Both the position numbers and the translations under genes were made by a program. The notes beneath the pieces are model-generated. The model was not told where the DNA came from. It searched no databases and saw nothing but the letters and a program-made list of their open reading frames with translations. Below, piece by piece: positions 1-24,056 of a stretch of DNA of 64,000 bases; position 1 is the first letter of the stretch, and the number at the start of each line of letters is the position of its first letter. The DNA is taken from NCBI RefSeq assembly GCF_025677645.1, contig NZ_CP106879.1:1922001-1986000 (forward strand), read 5' to 3'. The DNA is from Curtobacterium poinsettiae (lineage in GTDB: Bacteria; Actinomycetota; Actinomycetes; Actinomycetales; Microbacteriaceae).

Positions 1-1396
1 GGAACTGCTCGACGACGGTCCACACTTGCGCGCGCTTCGCCCGGTCGAGCGCCACCCCGCGGCCGGGACGTCGGGCCGCGAAGTAGTCCGCCCGTGTGAT
101 CACACCGCTCGGCAGGACGACTTGGAGGTACTCGCTCTCCAGGAAAGCGGGCGACCGCAGCTCACCCGGAAGGTCGGGCTTGGCGTCGAACACTGCCTCG
201 TCCCAGCCGGTGCCGTTCGAGACAAGGGAAGTGGAACGCTCGGCATCCCACCCGATGGCGTCGATCGATGCCTGTTCCCAGCCGGCCGGATCTGCGGCGT
301 CCCGAACGGCGTGCGCGAGCTGGTCGATCCCCGCTGTGAGGATGCCGCTTTCGCCGAGCTGCGCTGCACGAGGGAGCTGAGGATCGAGACGTTGCAGGTC
401 TCGGTCGAGCATCCCGGCGAGGGTCCTGGTGAACGTCGTGAGGACGATCCGGGCGTTCGCGTCCCCGGCGAGTTCTCGAGCTCGGTGCAGCAGGACCACC
501 GTCTTCCCTGTCCCGGCGCCTCCGGTCAAGCGGAACGGACCTTTGTAGGCGCGCGTCGCGTAGGCACGCTGTTCAGGGTGTAGGAACACTCGCCACGCTC
601 CAAAGTCTCCACCCTCGATGACGCGGCGGAGTTCCTCGTCGTCATCGACGAACGTGAACTGCATCTGCGACGCGGGTCGCTTGAGCGATTCGAGGAGTTG
701 AGAAGCCTCGGCCTCCGACGCCGTGGCGCTGGGTGCCACGTCCGCGGGATGCTCGTCCGCCGACTGAACAGTGGCCTCGGGCTCATCGCCGCCGAGTCCG
801 AGTGAGGTCTTGATCCCCTCGATCGAATCGCCGACCGCGAGGCCGAGCGCCGCGTTCTGCTGCCACTGGTTCGGCAAGGCCTCTGCGAACGCCAGGAGTT
901 CGTCGTCCGCCGCGAATCCGAGGAGCCGCTCGGCGGTCTCGAGGTCGAAGCCGAGCGAGCTCGTCAGGTCGTCGACGGTGTACCCGAACTGGTCGAGGAA
1001 CGGCTTCTGTGACGTCGGCGGCTCAGGAACCCACCGGGCGGATTGGGAAGCGGGTGCCGCCGGTGCGGGCGCTGCGATCAGTTCCGTCACCCCGTTGACC
1101 GGGTTGACCCGGAGCACCTGCGACTTCGCGATCTTGATCGCTTCGTCGTGCTCGTACACGCCAGCGCAGACATACGTCGTCGGCCCCGACGGCACCTCGA
1201 TCTTGTAGAGCACCGCTCGCAGCCCCTGGTCGACGCGACCCGTCCGGGCGCGCGCGTCGGCAGCGTTGACCATCGGCTCGATGTGCAGGCCGGGCAGGGT
1301 GTCGTCCGCCTGGAGCTTGGCCATGAAGGCGAACAGCTTCAACTGGACGACCTTCTCGAGCTTCTGCTGCATGTTCGCCATGACGAGCAACGGCAT
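1..1396 (-). CDS. UvrD/Rep-like SF1 helicase with toxin-like N-terminal domain (3' end outside window)
   Basis: Frame is open from ATG 1396 to the left edge, giving 465 visible residues. Residues about 287-300 carry a Walker A motif (GGAGTGKT, 292-299), followed by VLLHRAREL and IVLTTFTRTLA, typical of motifs I-Ia of UvrD-like ATPases; the other helicase motifs must lie beyond base 1. Residues about 10-105 (with LPGLHIEPM, TGRVDQGLRAVLYKI and YEHDEAIKIAK) resemble the RelE/ParE-like domain that precedes the helicase in some UvrD-like proteins; this is a pattern-level inference. Residues about 125-245 are an acidic linker. The start lies 1 nt after the stop of the upstream helicase gene, so the two are probably co-transcribed and translationally coupled. 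Likely last or late gene of the defence operon. Confidence 0.85.
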   Translation of the reverse strand, partial: MPLLVMANMQQKLEKVVQLKLFAFMAKLQADDTLPGLHIEPMVNAADARARTGRVDQGLRAVLYKIEVPSGPTTYVCAGVYEHDEAIKIAKSQVLRVNPVNGVTELIAAPAPAAPASQSARWVPEPPTSQKPFLDQFGYTVDDLTSSLGFDLETAERLLGFAADDELLAFAEALPNQWQQNAALGLAVGDSIEGIKTSLGLGGDEPEATVQSADEHPADVAPSATASEAEASQLLESLKRPASQMQFTFVDDDEELRRVIEGGDFGAWRVFLHPEQRAYATRAYKGPFRLTGGAGTGKTVVLLHRARELAGDANARIVLTTFTRTLAGMLDRDLQRLDPQLPRAAQLGESGILTAGIDQLAHAVRDAADPAGWEQASIDAIGWDAERSTSLVSNGTGWDEAVFDAKPDLPGELRSPAFLESEYLQVVLPSGVITRADYFAARRPGRGVALDRAKRAQVWTVVEQF

Positions 1397-1397
1397 G

Positions 1398-4300
1398 TCA
1401 GGAGTCCTTCCGGTGGTGCGGGATTCGGAGGAGAGCAGGATCGTCCGAGGGGGACACGAGGGACCAACCCTCGCCGAGGAGGTCATCGCGGTCCGCACTG
1501 CTCAGCAGTACGTCGAGCGCGATGCGTTCCCCTGGCCATGCGACCGGGATGGGGATGCCGCTGGCCGTTTCGTGACCGAGGGCGGGCACGGCGATGCCGA
1601 CTTCCGCGAGCGGCTGGAGGACCGCTGCCTCTTCCGGTTCGGCCAGCGCGATCAGCTCCTGCCACTCCGTGGTCAGATCCGCGCGGGACTCGTCGCGAAT
1701 CGGCGCCGTCGGCGCCACCGCGACGCTGGCTGTGGCACTGGCAGTCGTGATCGTGACCGGCTTCGCCAAGCGTGCTCCGAGCAGGTTCGACAGCCGCAGC
1801 CACCGTTGCCACGCCTCCCGGAACCCGGGCGCGGTCAGTGCTTCTGGCCCATCGTCGAGCACGAGCACTGTCTCAGGCGGCGTCGCTCCCGTCACGCCGG
1901 CCGGACGACGCGCGAGCATCGCCAGGTGTGTGGAGCGCAGTGCCCACGAAGTCGGACCGACCGTGAGTGGACCCGTGCTATCGAGCGCGAGCGCGATTGC
2001 CTGCTCCACGATCGACCCGCTCTCCGCGACCATCCGCCCCCTGCGGATTGCGAGCATCGGGAGCGCATCGGCGAGACGCTCGGTCCGTGCTGCAGCATCC
2101 TCCGGGCCTTGGATCCAGCCCATCAGCGTCGTGACCGGGTTCTCCCGAAGCATCGTCACGTCCGCAGGCGTCAGCTGGAAGGGCCCGGCAAACTTCATGG
2201 ACATCGACGGGTCGTGGACGTCCAGATCGGGCTCCGCTTCGTCGTCCCGCAGACGGCGCAGGTCGTCCCAGGTCAGCGCAATGACGCGGTAGCCGAGATC
2301 GCGCAGGCCCTGGCGCTTCGTCACGTCGTCTGCCAGTCGCAGATGCGCTGGCGACGCGTGGTAGGCGAACCCGTCCGCGTAGATCGCGACCGGCGGGACC
2401 GGAGCGCCCGATGCCTCGAGCACGAAGTCCGGCCGAGTGCCGCCGACGAGCTGCTGCGGCCGTAGCGACCACGTGCGGTGCTGACCCGGCAGTGTGACCT
2501 GGATCGTCGATCCCCACTCGCCCGGGATCTCCTTGAGGCTCGCGCCGAGCGCCGTCACACGCTCCTTGAACACCTTCCGGAACCACTGCTCGAGGTGCGA
2601 CTCCGGGTCCTGGACACCCGGGTCGACCTCGGTCGTCGACCATTCCGAAGCGCTGCCGTTCTGGTACTGCAGCAGCACATGGAGGTTGTGGAGTGCGCTC
2701 GTGCGCGAAACGCTGCCCACGTCGCCTCCGGGAGCGAACGGCAGCAGACACTTGTCGCACGCCGCTCGCACCGGGTCGGTTGCGCAGTCGCACCGCTCCA
2801 GGGCTGCGAGGGCCTCTTCGAACACCTCGCGGATGCGCGGGGGGTCGGCGAGGTCGGCGAGGTAGCCCGTCCCACCCGGCACGGTGTCGTGGATGAGCAG
2901 CGCGAGGTTGTTCACGTCCTCACCAGGGACGGGTTCGACGATGGTCGCGAGCTGGAGGTGGTCAGGGTCCCCACCGATGACCTCTCGCAGACCGAGCTGG
3001 ATCGCAGCGGACAAACTCGGCATCGACAGGGCGTCGCCGACGGTCATCGACGGCGGGACGCGGAGCACGATGGCCTGTGTCGTGAGCGTCCGCGTGAGGG
3101 CGATGGTGTCCGTGTGCTCGGCGCGGTCCTTCCGGAACCGACACCACGCACGGTGTTCCCATGCATTGTTCGTGTCGCCTTCCCGGTCGAGCTTCCCGCA
3201 CCCCTTGCAGACGCGGAACAACGGTGCGGCGTGCTCCGATCCGGCGACGAATCGACTCGCGCCGAGCCCGGCACGACCGAGGTTCACCCAGCGCAGCGTC
3301 ATCGACCGCGCGAACTTGCAGCCGAACCCGACTTCCTCGACGTACCACTGCGCCGACACGTCCGCGTCGTCGAGGTCCGCGGCGAGCTGGACGGTGAAAC
3401 GGACGCGTTCGCGTTCCTCATTGGCGTCACTGATGCTCGACTCGTCGCGGCGGATCTCGGCCGAGACGTGCTCGATCTCGACGACGCGGAGTCGCTGGTC
3501 GACGTCTGCGATGGCGGTGCTCGAGCACCGTGGACAGGTCGGTATAGGACCCTGGTCGAGGTCGCGGGCGAAGCCGCACTCAGGGCAGAACGCCATGGTC
3601 CGGACCCGCTCACCGTCGGTCCCGAGGTCGACGGCATCGATCGTCACGTCGAGCCCCTGCGCGTAGAAGTGCGCGCCCGGTGCGAACTCACTGATCGCCC
3701 GGCTGCGCCCTCGCTCGTAGCTCCGCTGTTCCTCGGCGAACTCGCCGGACTCGGGGTCGATCCAGGTGAGACCGACATCCAGTTGCACGCGGTCGTCGAG
3801 CAGCGTGTAGTTGGGGAGCACACCGTACCGTTCGAGGGCCGCGACCCAGAACTCGGTCCGCCGTTGCCCTGACTGCTTCCTCGCGAGGCGCAACGAGGCT
3901 GCAGCAGCCCTGGCGGCGGACACGTCGTCGCTCTCTTGGGTCTGGTCGGCAAGACGCTTGAGTTCGGGCAGCGACTCCTCGATCGTCTTGATCCGGATCC
4001 GGATCTGCTCGAGTTCCTGGTTCCAGTGCAGGCTCGCGTCGAGCAGCGTCCGCGCGAGCTGGCTCGATCGCTCGGCTGTGCCCACCGGCCGCGCCCAGTC
4101 GGCCAGCCCACCGATCACGTCCTCGTTCAACGATCCGAATGCCCCCGTGAAGCGAGCGAGGTGCTCGTCCGCGTGTTCTTCCGCATGCCTGATGACCAGG
4201 TCGAGGAACGATCCCGCAGCGGAATCGCCGAGGACCTTCGGCGCGTACTGGATCTCCGGGATCTCTCCGGCGGCAGCGAGTTGGTCGATGACGAACGCGG

Positions 4301-7300
4301 TGTACTGCCGTCGCAGGATCTCGACCGCGTTGAGGTAGGTCGCGGGTGGACGGACCGCACCGTTGATCACGGAGGACGGATCACCGATCTTCGGCAGCTG
4401 GTCTCCTCGTCCGAGGACGAACGCGAGGATGAGGGCGTTCCCCGTCAGACGTCCGGCCCGTCCGACACGCTGCAGGTACGACGACACCGTCCGGGGAAGT
4501 CCCGCCAAGAAGACGGTCGACAGGTCACCGATGTCGATGCCCATCTCGAGGGTCGGGGTCGCGACGAGGACGTTCGGAGCGTCCGGCTGCGCGTCGCTGT
4601 TCTTGAACTGGGTCTCGTAGTCCAGCCGGAGCTTGTCCTCGAGCAGGCTCGTGTGTTCGCGAGCGACGACACGGCGCATCTTCCCGTTGTCGTACTGGTC
4701 ACGGTAGAAGTTTTCCGGCGCAGCGTCCTTCAGCAGCAGCGTGCCGGGGCAACGCGCCATGGTGCACGGGCCGCCTGCGAGTTGCTCCACCGTCGTGCGC
4801 GCGGACGGTGTCTCGGTCTCGCACGTGTCGCACACGAGCGTCTGCCCGGTGCCGTCGCTGACGACCGGCGCGATGATGATGCTGCTCGGCGCGAGTCCGT
4901 AGGCACGTGTGTCGCCACCTGCGATCGGCCTCGACGTCACGATCCCCTCGCGGTCGAGCGTCTCGAAGAGCCGTCGCGCGAGCTTCTCGCCCGCAGACGG
5001 CACGACGCCGAGGCAGCGAGCCGTCCAGCGCGCGTACCAGCTCTGCGACGACGCGACGGTGTCGAGCGCCGACTCACGCGCGCCGGTTGTCTTCTTGCCC
5101 ACCCGCGCGAATGCGGGCGCTTCGCGCCCTTGTGGGAAGGCGGGCATGCCCTCGTGCCTCGGCCGGCCGCCCCACACCCAGTGACGGTTGCCGTCGTTCT
5201 CGACGTACCGGACCAGCCATGGGTGGTCGATCGCGCCGCGCTCACGCAGCCGTTCGAGGGTGCCGCGCACCCAGCGGACGACGGATGCGGCGTCGAGGAG
5301 ACCATCACGGGTGTCGTCGAGCGACCCGGCGACTTCGAGACCTTCGACGGCTGCGCGACCCACAGCCTCCAGGCGACTTGCCGGCCCCGCTTCGACGTGG
5401 GCGGCCAGACTGCCGGTCTCCTCGAGCGTGCGCCCGACCCGAGATTCGAGCCCGAACTCGAGCGCGAGGTCGAAGGCGAGCCTGCGCTGCACACGCTTTT
5501 TGACGACTGCCGACACGGCCTTGTCCGTGTCCCAGAACCCGCGGAAGCCGTTCCGCTCGGCGAGGTCGGGAGGGAGGAGCCGGTACCGCTCGCTCGGTGT
5601 GTGCGCGGCGGCGATCATCGCCGCGGGGATGTCGTCGAGCGTCGTCTCCTCGACGACGGCTTGTCGGACGGCGTTCCGCAGGTTGAAGACCCGAGCTCGG
5701 CTCTGGATGAAGCCCGCGCGGTGAGCGGCGTCCTGCACGCTGTCGGTGAAGACCAGAGCCTTCTTCTCACCGACGTCGAGGTGCCGATCACCGAACAGGG
5801 TCGTCACCACCGTGGAGAGCTGTGTGGCGATCGCCGAGCCCAAGAAGCGGATGCCGTTCGTCTTGCCGCAGTTGGGGCAGACGTCGTCGCGGGACTCGTC
5901 GTCCGCGTCGTTGCCCGTCAGCGTCAGGACCGGCACCGCGACGCCCTCGTCGTCGGCGTCCGGGCGTTCGCTCGTGATCTGCCGGTCGGCGACGCGGAAC
6001 CACCACGGACCGGTGGTCAGTCCATCGTCGTCACTCTCGCCGTCGAGGGCGAGTTCTCCTTCCCGAGGAGCGTGGATGAGCGCTCGGAACCGGCTCTTCG
6101 ACAGCTTCGTGGCGTGGTTCCGGCGGATGTTCGCATCCGTCTGCGCCAGGTCCCAGCCGGTCGGGGCAAGTTCGACACCCCAGCCGCTGCGACCGCAGTG
6201 CCGGCAGTACAGGGCGGGGAAAGCCGGTGCAACGTCCGCAGCGCCCGGCCCGATCCCGGTATCGGTTCGGAGCTCTCCGTCGTCAGCCCAGCGGAACTCG
6301 GGCAGCGCCTGTGCCGCCCGGTCGACGCGTGTGAGCGAGCGGACCCAAAGATGCAGGTCGACCGACACCGACCGGCGTCCGACCTCCTTGCGGAGGTGGC
6401 TGAGCGCGGCGAGCACCATCACGATCGTGGTGCGGCGGGCGTCGTCACGGTCCGCCGGCCGCTCCCCTGAGACGAGCTCGCCGGGGAACAGCGACCGCGC
6501 GAGCTCGGCGAGCGACGTCGCCTGCTCGGTCGCGATCACGAGCGAGCGGACGAACGGGTGAGCCAACACGAGGGTGAACTCGAGCTCGAGCCGGCCAGCG
6601 GCGTCGGTCGCCGAGGCAAGCGCTCCGGCGTAGCGCTCCTGCCCGTCCTCGTCCTCCACCGCGACGTAGAGCAGCTCGAGCACCGCCGCGGTGATCTCCT
6701 CCGGGCTACGCCGATGACCGGAGAGCTGCTCCTGGAGCTGCGCGGCGCGAGCGTCGATCAGCGGAACCGGTGCCAGGTGCAGCTTCTCGACCGCCTCGAT
6801 GGCTTCACGAGCCCACTCGTCGACGGACAGACGTGTCTCCGTGACGACGCTCGACGCGTTGAACCCGCCGCCGAACACCGTGTTCGCGAACGCGATCATC
6901 GCGGTCGGGTCGCTCCCGTCACCGAGCGTCGCCGACGTGGCGACCGGCGTCACGACGCCGAGCGGACGCTGCCGCGCCGCAGCGTCGAAGTCATCGTCGG
7001 CCCAACGTCCCTTGAGCGCGAGTCCGAGGCGACGCAGCAGCATCGCCACGTCCGTCCCCTGCGCGCCGTCGTACGTGTGGAACTCGTCCAGGACCAGGTA
7101 CTGGAGGCTCGTGGCGCTCTGGTCCCAGAGGGTCGCGTCCGACGGACGCAACAGCAGCTGGTCCAACATCTTGTAGTTGGTGAGCAGGATGTCCGGCGCC
7201 TGTTCACGCATGGCGGGACGGGAGGTGATCAGCCCGTCCTTCGTCACAGCCGAACGCTGTGGACCTTCCTCGCCGACGTAGAGCGCCGCACGGATCCCGC

Positions 7301-7796
7301 CGAGGGCCGAGTCGGTCATGATCAGGTCGGTGATGCGCCGAGCTTGGTCGTTCGCGAGCGCGTTCATCGGGTAGAGGATGAGCGCCTTGATCCCCTCGAT
7401 GCCTTGGCGCTTTGCACGCAGGACGTGGTCGAGGATCGGGTAGAGGAATGCCTCGGTCTTCCCCGACCCGGTGCCGGTCGTGACGAGCGTCGGCTGCGGA
7501 CCGTCGTGCTCAGGCGTCTGCAAGCTCGAGAGCCGGGCGATGGCTTCCGCCTGGTGCCCGTACGGAGCAATCGGGGGAGTCCACTCGAGCGCCGTCTCCC
7601 ATCCGGGATCCGCTGCACGGAACGGCAGCCGGAGCCGGACGTACGGCCCTCGGAAGATCCCGTCCTCCGGGTCCTGCAGGAACTGCTGCAGCGTCGTCTG
7701 CGCCTCGGGCTCGGAAAGCGCGAACGTCGTCGTCAGGAAGTCGACGAGCCCCTTCGTGATCTCGCCGGCCTGCACGGAGGGGAGGAGCTCACTCAT
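1398..7796 (-). CDS. YprA/DruE-type DEAD/H helicase with MZB (DUF1998) and nuclease-like C-terminal domain
   Basis: 2132 aa. Walker A TGTGSGKT is at residues 107-114, LYPMNALANDQ at 141-151, the Walker B variant DEFH at 237-240, ATSAT at 286-290, and motif VI QRVGRAGR at 1109-1116. Between the RecA halves lie a large insert and Cys pairs (CRHCG 531, CPNCG 640, CDTC 989). The MZB domain has DTVPGGTGY at 1637-1645 and four Cys (1669, 1671, 1680, 1683). Residues about 1785-1850 hold RPDFVLE, IYADGF and DDVTKRQGLRDLGY, a pattern like PD-(D/E)XK or Vsr-like nucleases. The size and the fused nuclease-like tail fit the DruE/YprA helicases of Druantia-like systems better than DrmA, whose MZB partner DrmB is separate. 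The start overlaps the methylase stop by 4 nt (ATGA). Predicted to translocate on DNA in an anti-phage complex. Confidence 0.9.
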   Translation of the reverse strand: MSELLPSVQAGEITKGLVDFLTTTFALSEPEAQTTLQQFLQDPEDGIFRGPYVRLRLPFRAADPGWETALEWTPPIAPYGHQAEAIARLSSLQTPEHDGPQPTLVTTGTGSGKTEAFLYPILDHVLRAKRQGIEGIKALILYPMNALANDQARRITDLIMTDSALGGIRAALYVGEEGPQRSAVTKDGLITSRPAMREQAPDILLTNYKMLDQLLLRPSDATLWDQSATSLQYLVLDEFHTYDGAQGTDVAMLLRRLGLALKGRWADDDFDAAARQRPLGVVTPVATSATLGDGSDPTAMIAFANTVFGGGFNASSVVTETRLSVDEWAREAIEAVEKLHLAPVPLIDARAAQLQEQLSGHRRSPEEITAAVLELLYVAVEDEDGQERYAGALASATDAAGRLELEFTLVLAHPFVRSLVIATEQATSLAELARSLFPGELVSGERPADRDDARRTTIVMVLAALSHLRKEVGRRSVSVDLHLWVRSLTRVDRAAQALPEFRWADDGELRTDTGIGPGAADVAPAFPALYCRHCGRSGWGVELAPTGWDLAQTDANIRRNHATKLSKSRFRALIHAPREGELALDGESDDDGLTTGPWWFRVADRQITSERPDADDEGVAVPVLTLTGNDADDESRDDVCPNCGKTNGIRFLGSAIATQLSTVVTTLFGDRHLDVGEKKALVFTDSVQDAAHRAGFIQSRARVFNLRNAVRQAVVEETTLDDIPAAMIAAAHTPSERYRLLPPDLAERNGFRGFWDTDKAVSAVVKKRVQRRLAFDLALEFGLESRVGRTLEETGSLAAHVEAGPASRLEAVGRAAVEGLEVAGSLDDTRDGLLDAASVVRWVRGTLERLRERGAIDHPWLVRYVENDGNRHWVWGGRPRHEGMPAFPQGREAPAFARVGKKTTGARESALDTVASSQSWYARWTARCLGVVPSAGEKLARRLFETLDREGIVTSRPIAGGDTRAYGLAPSSIIIAPVVSDGTGQTLVCDTCETETPSARTTVEQLAGGPCTMARCPGTLLLKDAAPENFYRDQYDNGKMRRVVAREHTSLLEDKLRLDYETQFKNSDAQPDAPNVLVATPTLEMGIDIGDLSTVFLAGLPRTVSSYLQRVGRAGRLTGNALILAFVLGRGDQLPKIGDPSSVINGAVRPPATYLNAVEILRRQYTAFVIDQLAAAGEIPEIQYAPKVLGDSAAGSFLDLVIRHAEEHADEHLARFTGAFGSLNEDVIGGLADWARPVGTAERSSQLARTLLDASLHWNQELEQIRIRIKTIEESLPELKRLADQTQESDDVSAARAAAASLRLARKQSGQRRTEFWVAALERYGVLPNYTLLDDRVQLDVGLTWIDPESGEFAEEQRSYERGRSRAISEFAPGAHFYAQGLDVTIDAVDLGTDGERVRTMAFCPECGFARDLDQGPIPTCPRCSSTAIADVDQRLRVVEIEHVSAEIRRDESSISDANEERERVRFTVQLAADLDDADVSAQWYVEEVGFGCKFARSMTLRWVNLGRAGLGASRFVAGSEHAAPLFRVCKGCGKLDREGDTNNAWEHRAWCRFRKDRAEHTDTIALTRTLTTQAIVLRVPPSMTVGDALSMPSLSAAIQLGLREVIGGDPDHLQLATIVEPVPGEDVNNLALLIHDTVPGGTGYLADLADPPRIREVFEEALAALERCDCATDPVRAACDKCLLPFAPGGDVGSVSRTSALHNLHVLLQYQNGSASEWSTTEVDPGVQDPESHLEQWFRKVFKERVTALGASLKEIPGEWGSTIQVTLPGQHRTWSLRPQQLVGGTRPDFVLEASGAPVPPVAIYADGFAYHASPAHLRLADDVTKRQGLRDLGYRVIALTWDDLRRLRDDEAEPDLDVHDPSMSMKFAGPFQLTPADVTMLRENPVTTLMGWIQGPEDAAARTERLADALPMLAIRRGRMVAESGSIVEQAIALALDSTGPLTVGPTSWALRSTHLAMLARRPAGVTGATPPETVLVLDDGPEALTAPGFREAWQRWLRLSNLLGARLAKPVTITTASATASVAVAPTAPIRDESRADLTTEWQELIALAEPEEAAVLQPLAEVGIAVPALGHETASGIPIPVAWPGERIALDVLLSSADRDDLLGEGWSLVSPSDDPALLRIPHHRKDS

Positions 7797-12466: not shown

Positions 12467-12469
12467 GGG

Positions 12470-15439: not shown

Positions 15440-15542
15440 GTGTTGCACCCTCTCACCCGAGCGAAGCCGCAGTTGTCGGCTGCGCCGGTTCTCACCCTAG
15501 CGCTGCGATCGATCCTCGCTTTTCGCGCTTCTCTTCCCTCCC

Positions 15543-18500
15543 TCATCGGACAGCGCGGCGCACGGCGTCGACCACGACCTCGTCGGCAGCTGATCTTGCG
15601 GTGAGGATCTCCCAACCTTCGGAGACGAGCCACGAGTTCCTCTGGATGTCGTCGTCAATGACGACGGCCACCCTGGAATCAGGCCAAGCGAGCTCGACCT
15701 GCCATTCGTTCGACGGACCGACGTCCATGCCGATCACTGGTGCGGGAACGTCTCGCAGTGCCGCCAGGATGCCGAAGACGGCGGGGTCGGCTAGTTCCGC
15801 GGTCGACTCTGAAGAGCCGGAGGACCCTTCGTCGAGCAGGGCAGCGAGGTAGTCGCCGGCGAGGCCACGAGCGAGGTCATCGTGGTGGCGTTGGTTCGAG
15901 AAGGTCCGGAGGCAGCGGTAGCAGCTCGTCTCAGGGCCGCACTCACAGTCGCGAACGGTTCGTAGTGCTCTTGCCAGCACGGCTTCCAAGTGGTCTGCGA
16001 TCAGCCGTGCGTAGCCCGCGCCGCCCGGTACCGTGTCGATCAATGTGATCGATGCGGTTTGTCCGTACCCATCCGTGACACCGTCGATGTTGTCCCGAGA
16101 GATCTGCAGCTGGTTCGCCGCGGCCTGCAGGACGGCGTAGAGGGTCGAGAGGGAGGTCGCGCTGACATCGGAGCCCGTCCACGGTCGGCTGAATGAGATC
16201 CGAACCACGTCTGTTTCGTACTTGTGTGCCAGGGCGTAACCGCGCGAGTAACCGGTGCATGTCTTGCCGGTGCGTGCGTGCTTGTGATCGCCCGCGGGAC
16301 GTTCCCCGAGCACGGGTTCCGCGCGACCACAAAAGTCGCACACCCAGAAGCCCCGATCCGCTGGACCGACGTTGATCCGTACCATACGCGCCCGTTCAGC
16401 GAGCTCGACGCCGACGACCCCGCCGAGGAGTTCGTGTTCCACTGCCGACACGGTCACCCCTTCCGAAGCCAGGCGTGTCTCGCCTCTCCAGCTTGCCAGC
16501 GGCTGTGACTCCCCAGGTCGATCCTTCCCACCCTCCGCGATGAAGCCGAACCGCGGTTCGAAGTACTCTCGAGGAGCACCGCTCGGGCTGGTTCCACAAC
16601 GGGCACACGGCTCATCGTCGCGTTCGAGCGATTCGGTGTACAGCCCGCACTCCTTGCAGATGCGGAAGTGGACGGGAGGCAGCTCGCGTTCCCGCCGACG
16701 GCCGAGACCGACCGAAGTCCATACCTTGCCGCCGGCAACGATGCGGGCGCCCGGCGCGTACTCGAAGATCGCCTGGGAGAGGTCCCGAGACAGCTCGAGC
16801 TTGCCGCTGAGCGGAGAGTCGAGTTGCGTCTGCATCTCGACCGTGTCGACCGGGAATCCGTACTTGGGAAGCAGATTGTGGTTGGCGAGGAATCCGATCA
16901 GCTCGCGATGCTGAACGGTGCGGAGCATCCGGTTGTACCTGTCGCCGAGCCCTCCTTTCTGCTTCGCGAACGCGTCAGCGGCCGCCTGCCGGTAGAACGC
17001 GCTCTCCTGGACGAACTCTTCGGATGCTCGCTGGATCAAGTCGGCCAGGGAGCGTTGCCAACGGTCGGACCGTGCGTACTCGGTTGAGACCGTTCCGTTC
17101 AGCGCGGTGTCGATCGAGTCCTGCACGTGCTCCGGGAGTTCGGCGACCCAGGTTGTGAGGCCGTCGGAGCCCCGGAATCCGTCATCTGCGTCGAAGAAGT
17201 CCATCACTGAGCGGAAGCGCCGGCGGTGCTCATCCCACTGATGACGGAAATACGCCCCGATGACGATCGAGAACACGTGCCGCTCAGCGATCCGCTCGTT
17301 CGCGATCGGTACCGTCGGAGGGCGTACTGCGCCGGCGATCAGCTGCCTCGGATCAGCGAACATCGCGAGATCGTGCGAGCGCCGTTGCGCATAGGTGAGG
17401 ACGAGCGCAGCGCTGTCGACACGTCGTCCGGCACGCCCCGCCCGCTGCACGTAGTTCGACACCGTCGGAGGGACATTGCGGAGGACAACGGACTGGAGCT
17501 CGCCAACGTCCACTCCGAGTTCGAACGTCGTGGAGCAGGAGAGCACGTTCATATGCCCGGCAACGAAGTCCTGCTGGATCGAAGCGGCCTCATCACTGGT
17601 CCACTGCGCCGTGTGCTCGGAAGCAAGCATCGGCACGACCGTGGATTCGCGGTACAGGACTCGGTAGTGATCCTCGTCAAGATCGGGGGATGGGAGACGC
17701 CACTGCTCCATCCGACCCTGACAACGGTAGGTCTCGCAGACACCGCGAACGTTGATGGATGAGACGCGACGGCAGACCGAGCATCGCCAGAGATCGGATT
17801 CCTCGTCGTGCACGACGGCTTCGATCTTGTTCGGATCAAGCTGCTGGACCACCCCGGTAGCGGGGACCGAGAAGGACGTGAACCAACCGAGCGCTTCGGG
17901 CCCGTCTGTTGTGAGGAGGCGCCAGATGCCGTTCAGGACTTGCTCGACGTTCGCGTCGACAGATATTGCGCGGAAGACGCGGTTGAGGTAGTCGGAACGC
18001 CGGTTGGCGCCACGCGTAGGCAGCCAGCTCAAGACTTTTCGCGGTCCGTCCGCACCGGCGCCGCGGATGTAGATGGGACCGAGACGGGGCTCGAAGAGCG
18101 GGTCGCGAGGGTCGACTCGCTCGAGAGAGCCGACACCGCCCTGGACACGGACCGATCGGACGAGGGCCTGCAAGAGTTCCGATGATTCTCGGCGGTTGAA
18201 TCCGAGGGACTCGAGGGCGGGTACGGCTCGTAGGGTTTCAACATCGTGCATCCGCCAGGAGAGCAGGCCGGTGCCTTCAAGCGACATGCGGTCGTCGAGG
18301 CTCAGAAGTTCGGCCTGTACCCAGGTCTCCGCGCGTGTCTGGCGATCCAAGGCTGTGGAAGAGACATCGAACACCCCTCGGGCCGCTGCCGACCTGCGGA
18401 CGACGCTGGCGATGTCCGTGGTACGAGGCGCCTCGTTCTCGAAGGTCGCTGAGCGCGCGGCCTCGAGGACGAGTCGTCGGCGGATGAAGCGGGAGTGCGA

Positions 18501-20351
18501 GTCTTCGACGAAGGGTGCGAAGAACGCAGCCTGTTGCCTGCTGTCGCTGAACACGAGCAACTTCCGGCCGCCGCCCGGCAGCTCCGCTTCCTCAGCGGCA
18601 ACGGCCGGGGGCAGTTCCTCGTACAGAGCCGAGGTCAGCACTCCGACGGCGGCGTTGTTGCCGCTCTCGAACCGACGCACCACGTTGGGACGTGCCGATC
18701 CGCAGTGGAGGCACCTGCCTGGACGCGCCGCGCGGATGCGCTGAGCGCGCACGAGGGGTTGTCCTGCGCAGCTGGCGTGGCGGCAGCTGGTCGCCTCTCG
18801 AGCGGTCATCCAGCCACATCGAGGACAAAGCCGGACAAGCGATGTCGATTCTTGAGGAAGCGTGTCCGGGGCGAGGTTCACCTCGTCCTCGTCGTACTGC
18901 TCTGGGAGAGGAGGCTCGAGACTGAGCCAGGTGACGCGTTCCGTTGCTCCTGACTTCGGAGTGAACCAGTGTTCACCGTCCGCAGTCCGTTCGGACCCGT
19001 ACAGGTACGTGCCACCGCAGTTGCGACAAGCGGCGAACTCGAACATTGCGCCGGCACACTCGACACAGTGCTCACGCCTCACGAGAGCCACATGCGGGCC
19101 ACTGTCGGTGAGGCACGTGAACGCGCCCTCGGTCGCTCGCGCGAACAGGTGGTACTTCGCATCGAGTGGTTCTCGAGAGACGTCTGTCGACGGCTCGTTG
19201 GCGCGCGCGATGACGTCGACCAGTGCGGTCCGATTCGGGATGGAGGGGCCGAGCAGCGCGGCCAACTCATCGAGCGTCCTCGGCTGTTCGGAAGCGAGCC
19301 GTTGAACGACACGGATTGGGTCCTCGCCCTGCGTGTCTTGCGGCGAGACGACATCGCGTCTCGCGGTCACCACATCTTGGTGTCCGCTTGTCGACTCGTC
19401 GTGTTCGAAGGGGACGCCGAAAAGGTCTGACGCGAACGTGGCCGCTCTTGCGTGGTCGGTCCCGACCGTTGCGCTCGTCGCGATGCACTGGATGGTCCTT
19501 GTTCGGGCCACCCGCTCCCGGAGACGCCGGAGCAAGAAACCAACTTCGGCTCCGGTCGCGCCGTCGTAAACGTGCGCTTCGTCAACGACGACGAAACGCC
19601 ACGTGCCGCTGTGCTCAGAAGTCGTGAAGAGCTCGAGGTCCGCGGGCCGAAGAAGGAGGTACTCGAGCATCGCGTAGTTGGTCAGGAGGATGTGCGGCGG
19701 ACTCGCTCGCATCGCCTCTCGACTCAGCAGTTCGTTCGGGAGCCGAGGAACGCCGGGGTTCTGTCGTTCGAACTGAGCAACGGCGTCGTCCTCCCGCTCA
19801 CGCGTGTCACCGGTGTACCGGCCGAACGTGATCTCCGGGGTCTCCGCCAGCAGGATGCGGAGGCGCTTGAGCTGATCGTTCGCGAGGGCGTTCATCGGGT
19901 AGAGCAACAGAGCGCGAACGCCTGCGCTGATGCTGCCCTCGGTCGCTTCTCGCTGGATCGCGTCGAGGATCGGCAGCAAGAAGCTTTCCGTCTTGCCGGA
20001 CCCCGTGCCCGTGGCTACGACGACATTGCGTCCCGCGGCGATCTTGCGGATCGATTCCTCTTGGTGGGAGTAGAGCGATCGATCAAGCGGGAAACGCGAG
20101 CCGAACCGCGCGAACCGGGGGGACAGGGTCCCCGCGTCGATGAGCTGCTGAGCAGTTGCTCCGGTCAGGTACGGAGGTTGGACATGCAGGTACGGGCCCT
20201 TGGTGAGTCCGCGCCCCGCTTCGCGCTCGACGGCGTCGCTCAGCGCCTTGTTCAAACGCTCGTCGACCGGTTCGATCAAGGTCTTGAGGTACCGCTTGTA
20301 CGTCGTCGTGACGACTTCGCCGACCCGAAGCGGATCGATCGTTCCGGTCAC
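15543..20351 (-). CDS. YprA/MrfA-type DEAH helicase with C-terminal MZB (DUF1998) domain
   Basis: 1602 aa from GTG 20351, which overlaps the preceding stop (GTGA) and has GGAG 6 nt upstream; a TTG 8 codons earlier has no good ribosome site. TGTGSGKT is at 114-121, LYPMNALANDQ follows, DEAHVYDG is at 257-264, QRAGRAGR is in the second lobe, and there are several Cys-pair fingers (CVECAG, CRNCG, CPRCG, CLHCG). The MZB domain has DTVPGGAGY and then CECGPETSCYRC. It is clearly paralogous to the larger helicase at 1.4-7.8 kb, sharing the LTNY and DGA.G motifs, motif VI and MZB. The final 60 residues contain a short module (WPDSRVAVVIDDD then SEGWEIL) echoed at the end of the larger helicase. The extra Zn fingers suggest contact with nucleic acid or partner proteins. 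Confidence 0.88.
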   Translation of the reverse strand: MTGTIDPLRVGEVVTTTYKRYLKTLIEPVDERLNKALSDAVEREAGRGLTKGPYLHVQPPYLTGATAQQLIDAGTLSPRFARFGSRFPLDRSLYSHQEESIRKIAAGRNVVVATGTGSGKTESFLLPILDAIQREATEGSISAGVRALLLYPMNALANDQLKRLRILLAETPEITFGRYTGDTREREDDAVAQFERQNPGVPRLPNELLSREAMRASPPHILLTNYAMLEYLLLRPADLELFTTSEHSGTWRFVVVDEAHVYDGATGAEVGFLLRRLRERVARTRTIQCIATSATVGTDHARAATFASDLFGVPFEHDESTSGHQDVVTARRDVVSPQDTQGEDPIRVVQRLASEQPRTLDELAALLGPSIPNRTALVDVIARANEPSTDVSREPLDAKYHLFARATEGAFTCLTDSGPHVALVRREHCVECAGAMFEFAACRNCGGTYLYGSERTADGEHWFTPKSGATERVTWLSLEPPLPEQYDEDEVNLAPDTLPQESTSLVRLCPRCGWMTAREATSCRHASCAGQPLVRAQRIRAARPGRCLHCGSARPNVVRRFESGNNAAVGVLTSALYEELPPAVAAEEAELPGGGRKLLVFSDSRQQAAFFAPFVEDSHSRFIRRRLVLEAARSATFENEAPRTTDIASVVRRSAAARGVFDVSSTALDRQTRAETWVQAELLSLDDRMSLEGTGLLSWRMHDVETLRAVPALESLGFNRRESSELLQALVRSVRVQGGVGSLERVDPRDPLFEPRLGPIYIRGAGADGPRKVLSWLPTRGANRRSDYLNRVFRAISVDANVEQVLNGIWRLLTTDGPEALGWFTSFSVPATGVVQQLDPNKIEAVVHDEESDLWRCSVCRRVSSINVRGVCETYRCQGRMEQWRLPSPDLDEDHYRVLYRESTVVPMLASEHTAQWTSDEAASIQQDFVAGHMNVLSCSTTFELGVDVGELQSVVLRNVPPTVSNYVQRAGRAGRRVDSAALVLTYAQRRSHDLAMFADPRQLIAGAVRPPTVPIANERIAERHVFSIVIGAYFRHQWDEHRRRFRSVMDFFDADDGFRGSDGLTTWVAELPEHVQDSIDTALNGTVSTEYARSDRWQRSLADLIQRASEEFVQESAFYRQAAADAFAKQKGGLGDRYNRMLRTVQHRELIGFLANHNLLPKYGFPVDTVEMQTQLDSPLSGKLELSRDLSQAIFEYAPGARIVAGGKVWTSVGLGRRRERELPPVHFRICKECGLYTESLERDDEPCARCGTSPSGAPREYFEPRFGFIAEGGKDRPGESQPLASWRGETRLASEGVTVSAVEHELLGGVVGVELAERARMVRINVGPADRGFWVCDFCGRAEPVLGERPAGDHKHARTGKTCTGYSRGYALAHKYETDVVRISFSRPWTGSDVSATSLSTLYAVLQAAANQLQISRDNIDGVTDGYGQTASITLIDTVPGGAGYARLIADHLEAVLARALRTVRDCECGPETSCYRCLRTFSNQRHHDDLARGLAGDYLAALLDEGSSGSSESTAELADPAVFGILAALRDVPAPVIGMDVGPSNEWQVELAWPDSRVAVVIDDDIQRNSWLVSEGWEILTARSAADEVVVDAVRRAVR

Positions 20352-23300
20352 CGTCGGCTCCAATGTTCGATCCAAATGTCTGCGAGGACGAGGTCTTGTT
20401 GCACCAGGCCCGGTGCGGCCCGCGCGAGGACCTCGAGGTAGGGCCGTGTCAGCTCGTGAAGGCGTGCCGCGCCTCCGGCGCTGCGGGCCGTCGCTCTGGC
20501 CACCAGGGCGAATGCGATGGACATCGCCGGCAGACTCGTCCAGTCCTCGTCACCGAAGCGACGACGGATCGGTGTCAGTGCCGACCGTCCGTAAACCTTT
20601 TCGAAGTAGGAGCACACTACGTCGAGCATGTGCAGACCGTTGCGCAGGTCGTAGGTGGCTTCAGCTCGGTTGTCGAACAGCTCCTTCGCGGCGGCCGCTC
20701 GGCTGTCCTTGTCGAGGAGTGATGTCGGCACGCAGTTCGCGACCCGCCAGAGCGCGTCCACCCGCTCGCGAGGCATGCGAGCCAGCTTCTTGGTCGTGTC
20801 GTCGAAACGCCCGACATTCGCCAGCGGATCCGAGGCGCTCTTCGAGAACTCTGAGAACACGTTGCCGAGAGCCCGGTCGCAAGCATCCGCATCCGCCGAT
20901 ACGAGTGCCTCTGGTCCGCTGCGGATCAAGGTCAGGTAAGCAATCCCGGGGAGGAAGTCCCACATACGACTCGTGGATCGGTAAGTGCCGGGCGCGACCG
21001 TTGCCACATCGGCACCGACGATGAGGCCAATCGAGGGATCGAGCACACTTCCGTTCTCGATCAAGTTGGGGACGAGAGCGCGGACCGGCCGGATCGCAGC
21101 AACGAGCTGCTGCCGCAGTCGGGAGCCCGGTTGATCGAACCGATCCAACGTGCTGCCGGAGTACAGACTCATAGCGAGCGGAAGGTTCTGCGGTGTCACG
21201 TCGAGCGGCTCCATGCCGGCGAGCCAGGACCGAATTCCACGTTCAGAGGGCTCATGCGGTTCTTCGAGCTGATCGACCGCCACACGGAAGACGTTCTCAG
21301 AGGTTGAGGGCGTTTCGGCGCTCCAGCGGCTAGGAACCCAAGGATCCTGAGTCCTGACCTCCGCAACAAGTTCTCCCTCGTAGAGCAGGTCGGAGGTGAG
21401 AACGACTGCGCCCTGATCAGCAGTCAGCACGATCGGCGGTTGCCACGGCGCGAACCGCCTGTAGATGCCGACTTCGATGGGTTCGTCCGTGCGGAGGCCT
21501 TCGAGGAGGAGTCGCGCTCCCTCTCGGCCGACAGTGCTCACGATGGCGCGCGGTCGGACGCGTGCCACCAGCGTTCGTGTCCCGTTCGCACCGACGTACA
21601 GATCCAGGACCTCGTGCTGACCGACGGTGTCCGCGATCTCTGCGAGGGTGAAATCGGACACGCCGTCTCGACGTCGGCGCTTGGGGGCGAGCGTCTGAAC
21701 AAGGAGCTCGCCATGCATCGCCACAAGGTGAGGGTGCTCGTCTACCGACCCGTGACGTACACGAACCGATAGAGAGCTGACTTCGTCGGAATCGACCAGG
21801 AGTGGTGTGGTGCTCGCGACGCCCTCCGATCCTGCTCGGATGAGCGCAACGGACATCGACGGCACCCTAATGCTGACGGCGACGGAATTCCCTTCGTCGT
21901 CTCGTGCTTCGAGAGCAGCGGTAGAACGGCGCCGACCCAATACGAGTGAGGAATGTGATGTGACGACGCCAGAGAGGCAGCGAACTTCGACACTCGCTGG
22001 TTCGAGCCCGTCATGTCCGGACAGCATCCGACGGAAGTTCACATCGGGTGACACTGTCAGACCCGAAACGATCGTCATTCGCCTGCGCGTGCCGCGTCCG
22101 AGCGGCCCGGACACTTCTAGATCGAACGCGCCGACGAGCGGCTTATCGCAATGATCAGTCAGCTTGATGTCGGCCGGGCTCCGCTCCGCGACGACCGTAG
22201 TGTCGAAGACCGACGAACGGTCGCTCGCGCGCCGGATCGACAACCGCCAAGTGACTCCGTCTGAGGGGCTCTCTGTTCCAATGGACGGGGCGCCGGGAAT
22301 GGTGATTCGGGGAAGCACTCCGTAGACGCCTTCGCCGTCCATGGCCGTTGCGAAGGCGACGGCGGGGGGCAGGATGATCGACGGCCGCATCGTGGCGGAG
22401 GTGTAGCGCCAGGGTGTCGTTCCTCGCAGACGGAACTGCGCGACGTCCCTGAGGTCGACTCTAACGAACAGCCAGTCGCCCCACCCCAGCGGGCTGTCGA
22501 CGATGTCCGCGTGCAACCCGGGCCCGTCGTACTCGAGGAGCTGCTCGAGCGGGAGCCCATCTGGGTTCGGCGCTGCCACCCAGACCGCACCCCGAGGCAG
22601 GCTGTTCCTCGGAGGGAGGAGTAGGCCGGTCTGTCCGTCGAACACGATCAACGGGTCGTTGGGATCGATCAGCGGAAGCTCCCACGACTGATCCCCCGGC
22701 GACACCTGCACGAGTACGTCGCGCGCGACTCGATTCACAGGGACTCGGATCTGCTCGACCGGGTCTCCGGGCCACGGCGGGTCGGCTCGCAAGCGCAGCG
22801 CGAGATCGTCGCCCCGGACCGTCCACCACACTGTGTCCTCCGTCAGAACCTCCAACGGTGGAAGGCTGACCTCGACACCTTCCGAAGCGCTGAACACCAA
22901 ACGGGGGTGCAGCTCGATCTCGCGCCCGCGCGTCCGCGGTCGTGCAATGCGCTTCTGCCCGAGTTCTTCCAGACCACGGAGTAGGTCAGGCTGCATGAGC
23001 CTCGGAAATGCGGCCACGTCCGCTGCGTCGACACCATTCGAGCTCCAGACTTCGAGCAGGTCGAGACATCGGTCGACAAGGTCCTCCGCAATCTCGCGCC
23101 CCTCCGTCAGGAAGCGATAGGTCGGGACGTCGAGCTTGTGCACGAGTGTCGCCGTGTGCGTGCTGGTCCGTCGGAGCCATTGACAGAACTGCCGGCCGTC
23201 GAGCCCTTCCGTGATGGCAGCTCGGCGCGCAAGGAGCTCGAGGAACTCGTCCATACGTTGTCCCGGGATACCGGTGTGCATGAGGATCTCATCGACGTTC

Positions 23301-23668
23301 CGGCGGGGAAAGCTGAACCGAGAAAGCCCGAACGAGTTGAGTGCAACACGGAACGCATCCGACAAGATGATCTGATCTGCCTGCGGAAGCTGGTGTCCCA
23401 GCGCTTCCTCAACGAACGGCCACATCCCGCCGAGTCGGTACTCGAACGCGGTGTTGCAGAGCCCGACGATGAAGGTCGCGCGGTATTTGTTGAGGAATGC
23501 GGATCGACGGGAGGGCGTGCTCGTCCACGGGTAGCTCCGCCCGATGATCGCCAAGACCTCTCTCGCGAGCTGCGGGTCGACATCGGCTTCCATCACGAGA
23601 GAGCGGCCTGTCAGCAAGCTTCGCCACTCGGTCTCGAGTGCGTCGAACTCATCTTGCGTAGTGATCAT
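20348..23668 (-). CDS. large protein of unknown fold preceding an MZB helicase (possible DruH analogue)
   Basis: 1106 aa from ATG 23668 (MITTQDEFDALE), chosen because GGGGAGAG precedes it; a start at 23716 would overlap the upstream ORF. I do not recognise a family. Residues 1-260 look helical (YPWTSTPSRRSAFLNKY, LVDRCLDLLEVW). From about 280 to 870 the sequence is rich in beta-type segments separated by Pro/Gly/Asp turns, suggesting stacked beta-sandwich domains. The last 250 residues are helical again (AKELFDNRAEATYDLRNGL). No ATPase or nuclease motif is evident. It overlaps the helicase gene by 4 nt, so a 1:1 partnership is likely. A protein of about this size followed by an MZB helicase is also the layout of type III Druantia (druH-druE); homology to DruH is a guess that needs a profile search. 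Confidence 0.8.
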   Translation of the reverse strand: MITTQDEFDALETEWRSLLTGRSLVMEADVDPQLAREVLAIIGRSYPWTSTPSRRSAFLNKYRATFIVGLCNTAFEYRLGGMWPFVEEALGHQLPQADQIILSDAFRVALNSFGLSRFSFPRRNVDEILMHTGIPGQRMDEFLELLARRAAITEGLDGRQFCQWLRRTSTHTATLVHKLDVPTYRFLTEGREIAEDLVDRCLDLLEVWSSNGVDAADVAAFPRLMQPDLLRGLEELGQKRIARPRTRGREIELHPRLVFSASEGVEVSLPPLEVLTEDTVWWTVRGDDLALRLRADPPWPGDPVEQIRVPVNRVARDVLVQVSPGDQSWELPLIDPNDPLIVFDGQTGLLLPPRNSLPRGAVWVAAPNPDGLPLEQLLEYDGPGLHADIVDSPLGWGDWLFVRVDLRDVAQFRLRGTTPWRYTSATMRPSIILPPAVAFATAMDGEGVYGVLPRITIPGAPSIGTESPSDGVTWRLSIRRASDRSSVFDTTVVAERSPADIKLTDHCDKPLVGAFDLEVSGPLGRGTRRRMTIVSGLTVSPDVNFRRMLSGHDGLEPASVEVRCLSGVVTSHSSLVLGRRRSTAALEARDDEGNSVAVSIRVPSMSVALIRAGSEGVASTTPLLVDSDEVSSLSVRVRHGSVDEHPHLVAMHGELLVQTLAPKRRRRDGVSDFTLAEIADTVGQHEVLDLYVGANGTRTLVARVRPRAIVSTVGREGARLLLEGLRTDEPIEVGIYRRFAPWQPPIVLTADQGAVVLTSDLLYEGELVAEVRTQDPWVPSRWSAETPSTSENVFRVAVDQLEEPHEPSERGIRSWLAGMEPLDVTPQNLPLAMSLYSGSTLDRFDQPGSRLRQQLVAAIRPVRALVPNLIENGSVLDPSIGLIVGADVATVAPGTYRSTSRMWDFLPGIAYLTLIRSGPEALVSADADACDRALGNVFSEFSKSASDPLANVGRFDDTTKKLARMPRERVDALWRVANCVPTSLLDKDSRAAAAKELFDNRAEATYDLRNGLHMLDVVCSYFEKVYGRSALTPIRRRFGDEDWTSLPAMSIAFALVARATARSAGGAARLHELTRPYLEVLARAAPGLVQQDLVLADIWIEHWSRR

Positions 23669-23712
23669 CTTGCTCTCCCCGTCCGGATGGCAGCGGCTCA
23701 GGATATGAGTCC

Positions 23713-24056
23713 TCACCGACGTTCGGAAGACGATGCGCGTGCCGCCCGATCCCGGCGGAGGCGCCTTCCGGTCCGAACGAGGTCCGAGAGCCGAGCGACG
23801 TCGTCGGTGACGACCTCCTGCACGCGATGGATACGAACGTCGCCGACAGACGCTTCGCGCTGTGCCTTCCCATCGACCAGGTGCACTCCGATACCGGCGA
23901 GCGACGCGGATACACAGGCGATTTCGGCTTGGAGCACTCTGCGAGGTCGTAGCGTTCGGCGCGCTGCTCGGCTTCTTCCGTCTGCGGTCGGTGTTCGTCG
24001 GTACGGCTGAGGAGCCGGAGGGCTTCTGCCCCGGCAGAGGTGCCGGCGATGGTCAC
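23713..24056 (-). CDS. small ORF at the head of the defence operon, apparent frameshift
   Basis: GTG 24056 follows a strong AAGGGAG site by 7 nt and begins VTIAGTSAGAEALRLLSR, then an acidic helix ending near RAERYDLAE. That frame then degrades into Arg/Ser/Pro-rich shadow sequence. The next frame takes over at about 23937 with VLQAEIACVSASLAGIGVHL and runs to a stop at 23713. Joining them gives a compact protein of about 114 residues with one -1 shift near 23935-23945. The sequence at the shift is not a classic slippery heptamer, so a real inactivating indel or a sequencing error is more likely than programmed frameshifting. The stop is 44 nt before the 1106-aa gene. Function unknown; small leading ORFs in defence operons are sometimes regulators. 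Confidence 0.5.

What the first reader, a model, noticed from the sequence alone, without database searches (positions are those of the whole stretch)
1..24056. Composite multi-helicase/methylase defence operon linking DISARM-like and Druantia-like parts
Five complete large genes plus a truncated UvrD-like gene lie on one strand with overlaps or 1-3 nt gaps (one 103-nt gap). SNF2 helicase + 1557-aa adenine methylase is the DISARM class 1 pair (DrmD, DrmMI). A 1.1-kDa-residue-class unknown protein (1106 aa) + MZB helicase is Druantia III-like. A second, 2132-aa MZB helicase replaces separate DrmA/DrmB. From memory this mix matches systems recently named ARMADA, but two MZB helicases plus a toxin-like UvrD helicase in one operon may be a new subtype.
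Basis: partly seen in the sequence, partly recalled or inferred. Interest (0 to 1): 0.9.

Follow-up and report, generated by a model that had tools for sequence, protein, structure and literature searches.

The report
ARMADA–Druantia array with shared helicase tail
The operon is a known pairing of two anti-phage systems (ARMADA type II plus a Druantia III-B-like pair), but its Druantia helicase carries a small inactive-nuclease-like tail that also ends the ARMADA helicase, a hint that such tails couple separate bacterial immune systems.

Summary
In detail: six co-directional genes, the sixth cut only by the window edge. The "new composite system" reading does not. ArmA-B-C-D is ARMADA type II (PMC12458937); all eight residues mutated in E. 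coli are conserved. Upstream is a Druantia III-B-like DruH–DruE. E. coli has the same six-gene order.

New: DruE ends in a ~90-aa inactive Vsr/PD-(D/E)xK-like tail that also ends ArmC and E. coli Zorya ZorE. Of 74 DruE loci with readable C-terminus, 23 are tailed; 19 of these are ARMADA-linked, against 0 of 51 tail-less. In 50 genomes close ArmD occurs in 19/20 tailed, 0/30 tail-less. DruE tails are not one clade (AU p=0.0001). A DISARM DrmB beside ARMADA also bears it.

Against: two ARMADA-linked DruE lack the tail, one tailed DruE has no partner found, ZorE bear it without ARMADA in view, and phylogeny-aware p is 0.0625 at best. Docking is inferred.

The parts
20348..23668 (-). DruH-like protein of the III-B type (1106 aa); sensor candidate
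   Evidence: No hit in Pfam, PADLOC, NCBIfam or PDB sequences. Its profile (E<=1e-5) hits in 75 of the 80 loci, mostly the gene before DruE; one of the 75, L056, is a short weak match. AF2 pLDDT 86: helices 1-240, beta/Ig-like 256-800, helices 812-1106; similar layout and length to E. coli DruH as described in PMC13192584. Sequence homology to DruH not detected.
15543..20375 (-). DruE of Druantia III type, III-B-like (YprA-family helicase with MZB; no PLD domain found)
   Evidence: PADLOC DruE3 3.8e-175; MZB 6e-13; 28-30% identity to E. coli DruE in two stretches; Walker A, DEAH and QRxGRxGR present.
15555..15830 (-). DruE C-terminal tail, inactive Vsr/PD-(D/E)xK-like (residues 1516-1607)
   Evidence: AF2 pLDDT 88, order H-EEE-H-E-H; sensible closest folds are endonuclease-like but weak.
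12470..15448 (-). ArmA: SNF2/BrxHII-like helicase
   Evidence: NCBIfam DrmD 1.4e-95, below its cut-off; 35% to E. coli ArmA over 949 columns; K153, D252 conserved.
7793..12466 (-). ArmB: PglX/YeeA-like adenine methyltransferase
   Evidence: Eco57I domain; 33% to E. coli ArmB over 1475 columns; GNPPW N947, G570. PADLOC 2.0's best family is a type IIG enzyme.
1398..7796 (-). ArmC: YprA-family helicase with MZB and Vsr-type nuclease
   Evidence: K113, D237.
2217..2519 (-). ArmC Vsr-type nuclease core (PDF...DGxxYH...DDxxKR), approximate bounds
   Evidence: Aligned across 25 ArmC proteins; motif read by eye.
1443..1703 (-). ArmC C-terminal tail, homologous to the DruE tail (residues 2032-2118)
   Evidence: Found at E=3.5e-19 by a profile made of DruE tails only.
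1..1396 (-). ArmD: RelE-like + UvrD/GajB-like helicase, continues left of the window to L003:9141
   Evidence: 31% to E. coli ArmD; K332, D537.

Best explanation
Two anti-phage systems form one array: a Druantia III-B-like pair (DruH-B, DruE) followed by ARMADA type II (ArmA-D). Most likely, DruH-B senses infection and DruE loads on 3'-ssDNA-bearing phage replication intermediates. This DruE shows no PLD nuclease. Its C-terminal inactive Vsr-like tail is, I propose, a graft related to the ArmC tail that lets it recruit the same ARMADA partner, best candidate ArmD (RelE-UvrD), or the Vsr nuclease of ArmC, so the two helicases feed one effector pool. Shown here: gene content, order, conserved residues, tail homology, its link with ARMADA/ArmD, and more than one origin of DruE tails. 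From the literature on E. coli homologues: roles of DruH, DruE and ARMADA, and ARMADA-Druantia synergy against some phages. Inferred: that the tail docks, and that ArmD is its partner.
For: Same six-gene order in E. coli, where the two systems are synergistic for a subset of phages (PMC12458937). All 8 residues mutated there are conserved here. DruE-only tail profile finds ArmC tails at 1e-11 to 1e-19. Tail with ARMADA: 19 of 23 tailed vs 0 of 51 tail-less loci; tail with close ArmD: 19/20 vs 0/30 genomes, Fisher 7e-13. Tail changes at least 7 times on the DruE tree; 5 of 5 informative independent pairs agree with ArmD in 180 of 200 pairings, 4 of 4 in the rest. DruE tails not one clade. L071: DruH-DruE(weak tail)-ArmD with no ArmA-C in view; L038: tail, no ArmA (E<=1e-100) in the genome, but ArmD 8 kb from DruH. 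A second ArmD next to tailed DruE in four Nocardia loci, L035, L050, L052, L080. In 394 genomes the strong tail carriers that are not ArmC by frame length or remnant are three, two DruE and one DrmB, each beside ARMADA.
Against: G482 and G757 have ARMADA-linked, ArmD-adjacent DruE without the tail. L006 keeps a tail with neither ArmA nor ArmD found in its genome. Four of the 51 tail-less loci (L012, L026, L027, L065) have a more distant ArmD-like gene in the flank, and 10 of the 30 tail-less genomes a weak ArmD match. A DUF1998 (DrmB-like) gene beside ARMADA on a Tsukamurella plasmid has no tail. ZorE of P. putida and Vibrio plasmids bear the tail with no Druantia or ARMADA in view. Phylogeny-aware p is 0.0625 (ArmD), 0.25 if only whole-genome-searched rows count (3 of 3 pairs), 0.125 (ARMADA). 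No test of binding. DruH-B homology to DruH not shown by sequence.
Confidence: 0.55

Rival explanations
1. Two separately working defence systems that merely sit together. The tail spreads by recombination between neighbouring, related helicase genes and has little function.
For: Much actinobacterial ARMADA II stands without Druantia: no III-B DruE in view in the 31 ArmA regions (several cut by contig ends), and only G482 and G757 of these when other contigs were read. Tailed DruE without ARMADA (L006) and linked DruE without tail exist. The window sits at a variable site.
Against: Linkage recurs in several gene orders (co-directional both ways, divergent, convergent). Tails are kept over whole clades, and the window DruE tail is not a copy of its own ArmC tail.
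Confidence: 0.25
2. The tail binds nucleic acid rather than a protein: an inactive Vsr-like module directing different helicases and ZorE to one DNA (or RNA) structure.
For: PD-(D/E)xK-type order of elements; weak matches to DNA endonucleases and mitoribosomal proteins. ZorE carries it without ARMADA in view. PMC13192584 saw no stable Zorya-Druantia complex and favours shared DNA intermediates (passages).
Against: Does not explain the link with ArmD in DruE genomes.
Confidence: 0.2

Closest known systems
ARMADA type II (E. coli NCTC 12900 / ATCC 8739; Bell et al. 2025, PMC12458937)
   Same: Order ArmA-ArmB-ArmC-ArmD, domains, and all eight mutated residues (compared with E. coli 13C1065T proteins).
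   Different: 27-40% identity only; host is related to Microbacteriaceae such as Curtobacterium (closest DruE).
Druantia type III (E. coli, III-A) and III-B branch
   Same: DruH-size protein then DruE; DruE3 is the best PADLOC family; co-directional with ARMADA.
   Different: No PLD domains found in DruE; DruH-B has no detectable sequence similarity to DruH; DruE has the Vsr-like tail.
Zorya II ZorE C-terminal extension (Wu et al. 2026, PMC13192584)
   Same: E. coli ZorE 277-347 matches the tail profile; 17 of 26 tails hit PADLOC ZorE2, window DruE tail at its positions 288-366.
   Different: In the sections read, that paper leaves the region unassigned and ties it to Druantia III; here it is one family with the ArmC/DruE tail.
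DISARM class 1
   Same: ArmA is DrmD-like, ArmB partly DrmMI-like.
   Different: No DrmA, DrmB or DrmC among the six operon genes.

Membership tests
ARMADA type II | Gene order BrxHII-like helicase, PglX-like methylase, YprA helicase, RelE-UvrD helicase | tested here: met
ARMADA type II | Residues mutated in E. coli (ArmA K136 D236; ArmB N971 G605; ArmC K110 D234; ArmD K266 D454) | tested here: met
   8 of 8 aligned residues identical; ArmB G605 and ArmD D454 mattered only partly in that work
ARMADA type II | ArmC with predicted active Vsr-type nuclease; often further inactive domains | tested here: met
   Motifs aligned (read by eye); tail
ARMADA type II | RelE-like N-terminus of ArmD | tested here: inconclusive
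   Aligns with E. coli ArmD N-terminus; the RelE name is from PMC12458937, fold not tested here
Druantia type III | DruE YprA-family helicase | tested here: met
Druantia type III | DruH partner | tested here: inconclusive
   Position, length and helix-Ig-helix layout match; no sequence match; PDB 9tud not among the 50 Foldseek rows shown, and it may not be in that library
Druantia type III-B (Bell et al.) | Placement in the III-B branch of the YprA tree | not tested
   Reference GIH50614.1 was not fetched; inferred from actinobacterial kin and lack of PLD
DISARM class 1 | DrmA, DrmB, DrmC | tested here: not met
   Not the best family of any of the six operon genes; the PLD gene further down is ZacB
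Any | Anti-phage activity | not testable with these tools
   -

The most novel reading that the evidence does not exclude
A portable, catalytically dead Vsr-like tail is the plug that couples separate prokaryotic immune systems: present on ArmC, repeatedly grafted onto Druantia DruE and once seen on DISARM DrmB when they sit beside ARMADA, and shared by Zorya ZorE. It would let several helicase systems share ArmD (RelE-UvrD) or ArmC's nuclease, making an array one machine.
Probability: 0.35. Interest if true: 0.85.

Novelty: new variant of a known kind. Interest (0 to 1): 0.6.

Why it matters
Synergy between defence systems is being measured, but its physical basis is often unclear. If one small domain marks the partners, coupling becomes directly testable by deleting or swapping about 90 residues, and partner systems could be predicted from sequence. 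It would also give an identity to the unassigned C-terminal region of synergy-competent ZorE.

Tried and rejected
Rejected: (1) new composite system, because the same gene order exists in E. coli (homology). (2) Tail strictly tied to ARMADA: L006, L038, L071, L077 and ZorE without ARMADA in view speak against it; ArmD fits DruE better. (3) Window DruE tail as a recent copy of its own ArmC tail: it is closer to other ArmC tails (41%, 38%) than to its own (20%). (4) DruH-B as DruH by sequence: phmmer, hmmsearch, hhalign fail. (5) Plasmid carriage of DruH-B: no match in PLSDB. (6) ARMADA in phages: only partial ArmA matches. Foldseek on DruH-B gives multi-Ig proteins at TM 0.2 or less in the rows shown, not informative. 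Tail vs ArmC Vsr by hhalign is weak (prob 15, E 0.0017) and Pfam gives the tails no significant family (DUF559 at 0.083 for one of 23), so Vsr kinship rests on the model topology, weak fold matches and PMC12458937.

Limits of the counts: six DruE with cut or broken C-termini (L039, L042, L046, L049, L060, L082) were dropped from tail counts and tree. Some flanks are cut by contig ends. The genome searches score a capped number of candidates per genome (at most 2, 13 and 5), so counts there are lower bounds. From the tail tree L071 was dropped by choice; L052, L077, G145, G757 and cut ArmC were not entered. The groups were chosen after seeing the tree.
Full report
WHAT IS THERE. The window lies at G000:C1:1922001-1986000 of a 3.76-Mb genome; the closest DruE relative listed is in Curtobacterium (69%). 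Six large genes run on the minus strand. The last is complete once the genome left of the window is read. Downstream on the same strand come ZacA-ZacB-ZacC (PADLOC 1.6e-120, 5.7e-156, 0), the genes of the Azaca system (name recalled). Pieces of the flanks are found in relatives of the genus, and G824 has about 11 kb of other DNA between matching flanks, so the site is variable. DruH-B was found in 5 of 398 genomes of the family (own included); none of the 9 other same-genus genomes listed has it.

WHAT IT IS. The last four genes are ARMADA type II. Of Bell et al. 2025 (PMC12458937) I read the abstract, parts 1-4 of 8 of the text, the figure legends and one methods section. It defines ArmA (BrxHII-like), ArmB (PglX-like), ArmC (YprA helicase with Vsr nuclease) and ArmD (RelE + GajB-like helicase). 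Window proteins match E. coli ArmA-D as best partners, and all eight residues mutated in that work are identical here. E. coli 13C1065T carries ZorE-ZorB-ZorA facing DruH-DruE-ArmA-ArmB-ArmC-ArmD; two more E. coli loci show the same order. That is the six-gene order of the window. The paper reports synergy of ARMADA II with Druantia III for some phages. So the gene set is not new.

THE DRUANTIA HALF. DruE is a DruE3-type helicase, 28-30% identical to E. coli DruE, with no PLD domain found. The 1106-aa partner has no family hit, but its profile finds relatives in 75 of the 80 loci. Its model (pLDDT 86) shows helical ends around a beta/Ig-like middle at residues 256-800. PMC13192584 (abstract, passages and sections 5 and 13 read) describes E. 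coli DruH with helical ends and three Ig-like domains within 257-748; E. coli DruH is 1119 aa. I therefore take the partner for a far-diverged DruH; sequence methods do not show it.

THE SHARED TAIL. The last ~90 residues of the window DruE hit PADLOC ZorE2 (1.7e-9), as do 17 of 26 tails scanned. A profile from 22 DruE tails finds the window ArmC tail at 3.5e-19 and four other ArmC at 1e-11 or better. E. coli ArmC and ZorE have it, with weak scores of their own (15 and 22 bits). AF2 gives H-EEE-H-E-H, pLDDT 88, the PD-(D/E)xK core order (recalled). Foldseek matches are weak (none under 0.001); the best sensible one is an endonuclease-like protein, 3hrl, TM 0.65. The tail lacks the PDF/DGxxH/DDxxKR residues of the ArmC Vsr domain (by eye). 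Bell et al. already note inactive Vsr domains after ArmC's nuclease and Vsr in some III-B DruE.

WHO CARRIES IT. Of the 80 loci, 74 have a readable DruE C-terminus: 23 tailed (L071 and L077 only weakly: E 4e-4 and 0.2, plus eye), 51 not. ARMADA genes lie within the held flanks of 18 tailed loci (in L080 only ArmD, with ArmA on the same contig), and in L032 ArmA lies about 13 kb from DruE: 19 of 23, against 0 of 51. Four of the 51 have a more distant ArmD-like gene. Of the other four tailed loci, L071 has ArmD directly behind DruE and L077 a NERD-UvrD helicase, L038 has ArmD 8 kb from DruH, and L006 has neither ArmA nor ArmD at the thresholds used. In 50 whole genomes, ArmA at E<1e-260 is in 18 of 20 tailed and 0 of 30 tail-less; 6 of the 30 have a more distant ArmA. 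Close ArmD (E<1e-20 for its N-terminal part) is in 19 of 20 and 0 of 30; 10 of the 30 have a weaker match (Fisher 7e-13). Fisher ignores kinship. On a quick tree of 79 DruE cores the tail changes at least 7 times; independent pairs agree 4:0 with ARMADA (p 0.125) and 5:0 with ArmD (p 0.0625; 3:0, p 0.25, if only whole-genome-searched rows are used).

LESS BIASED SAMPLES. ArmA is in 42 of 394 Actinomycetes, DruE (E<1e-100) in 19 of 355; 11 of these 19 also have ArmA (I did not check that the 355 are all among the 394). In the tail search only two DruE appear, the window's and G717, both beside ARMADA. Two tail-less ones, G482 and G757, are also beside ARMADA, behind ArmD. In the 31 ArmA regions no III-B DruE lay in view. 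Of 23 ArmC met there 21 show the tail; the other two run off the fetched stretch. Searching the tail in the 394 genomes, hits of 47 bits or more are two DruE, one DISARM DrmB next to ARMADA, an ArmC remnant before ArmD (G535), an ArmC fragment (G717), one unexamined 1057-aa frame (G696), and otherwise frames of ArmC length, not each checked. Weaker hits, mostly in frames of about 300-400 aa, were not examined.

ORIGIN. In a tree of 55 tails, DruE tails do not form one clade (lnL 50 lower, AU p 0.0001); without L019 still p 0.0014. Holding the Microbacteriaceae + Nocardia/Rhodococcus group together, or the Mycobacterium/Nocardioides group + L019 together, is not rejected (p 0.38, 0.11). So at least two origins are firm. 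With 88 columns many forks are open, and which way the tail moved is not shown.

MECHANISM AND LIMITS. See Best explanation. The association with ArmD is strong as counts, modest once kinship is allowed for, and has named exceptions. ZorE with the tail but no ARMADA in view suggest the domain also serves elsewhere. Paper searches listed no title or abstract start that links this tail to ARMADA-Druantia coupling; only the two preprints named were opened, in part, and supplements could not be read, so it may be there.

Noticed in passing
L003:6913-8157(-), L003:5160-7250(-), L002:12044-15376(-): Complete Azaca-type ZacABC downstream of ArmD on the same strand; ZacABC matches also lie near DruE in L008, L030 and L081.
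   Followed up: partly
L002:11263-12033(+): PADLOC candidate defence protein PDC-S30 (6e-102) next to ZacC.
   Followed up: no
window:24171-25175(+): ORF with a weak SAD/SRA (modified-base reader) match, below Pfam's cut-off, just upstream of the array.
   Followed up: no
L219:5411-10706(+): DISARM DrmA-DrmB convergent with ARMADA II, one ORF between; DrmB ends in the ArmC-like tail (E 1e-23).
   Followed up: partly
L071:425-11354(+): Clostridiaceae locus DruH-like, DruE (weak tail), ArmD without ArmA-C in view; a possible minimal hybrid (contig ends).
   Followed up: partly
L035, L050, L052 (and G424 in L274-L275): Two or three ArmD copies per Nocardia locus; in L035, L050 and L052 one abuts the tailed DruE convergently.
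   Followed up: partly
G757 C51 (L269, L270): Continuous ArmB-ArmC-ArmD-DruH-DruE run; DruE has a different C-terminal extension, by eye also in G482, G594 and L009.
   Followed up: no
L026:16648-21247(-), L027:15894-20272(-): ArmD-like helicase followed by another gene (HEC-05-like in L026) near tail-less DruE; perhaps another ArmD-using system.
   Followed up: no
window:7793-12466: PADLOC 2.0's best family for ArmB is a type IIG restriction enzyme (1473 bits), and it has no model hit for DruH-B, so automatic calls may split this array.
   Followed up: partly
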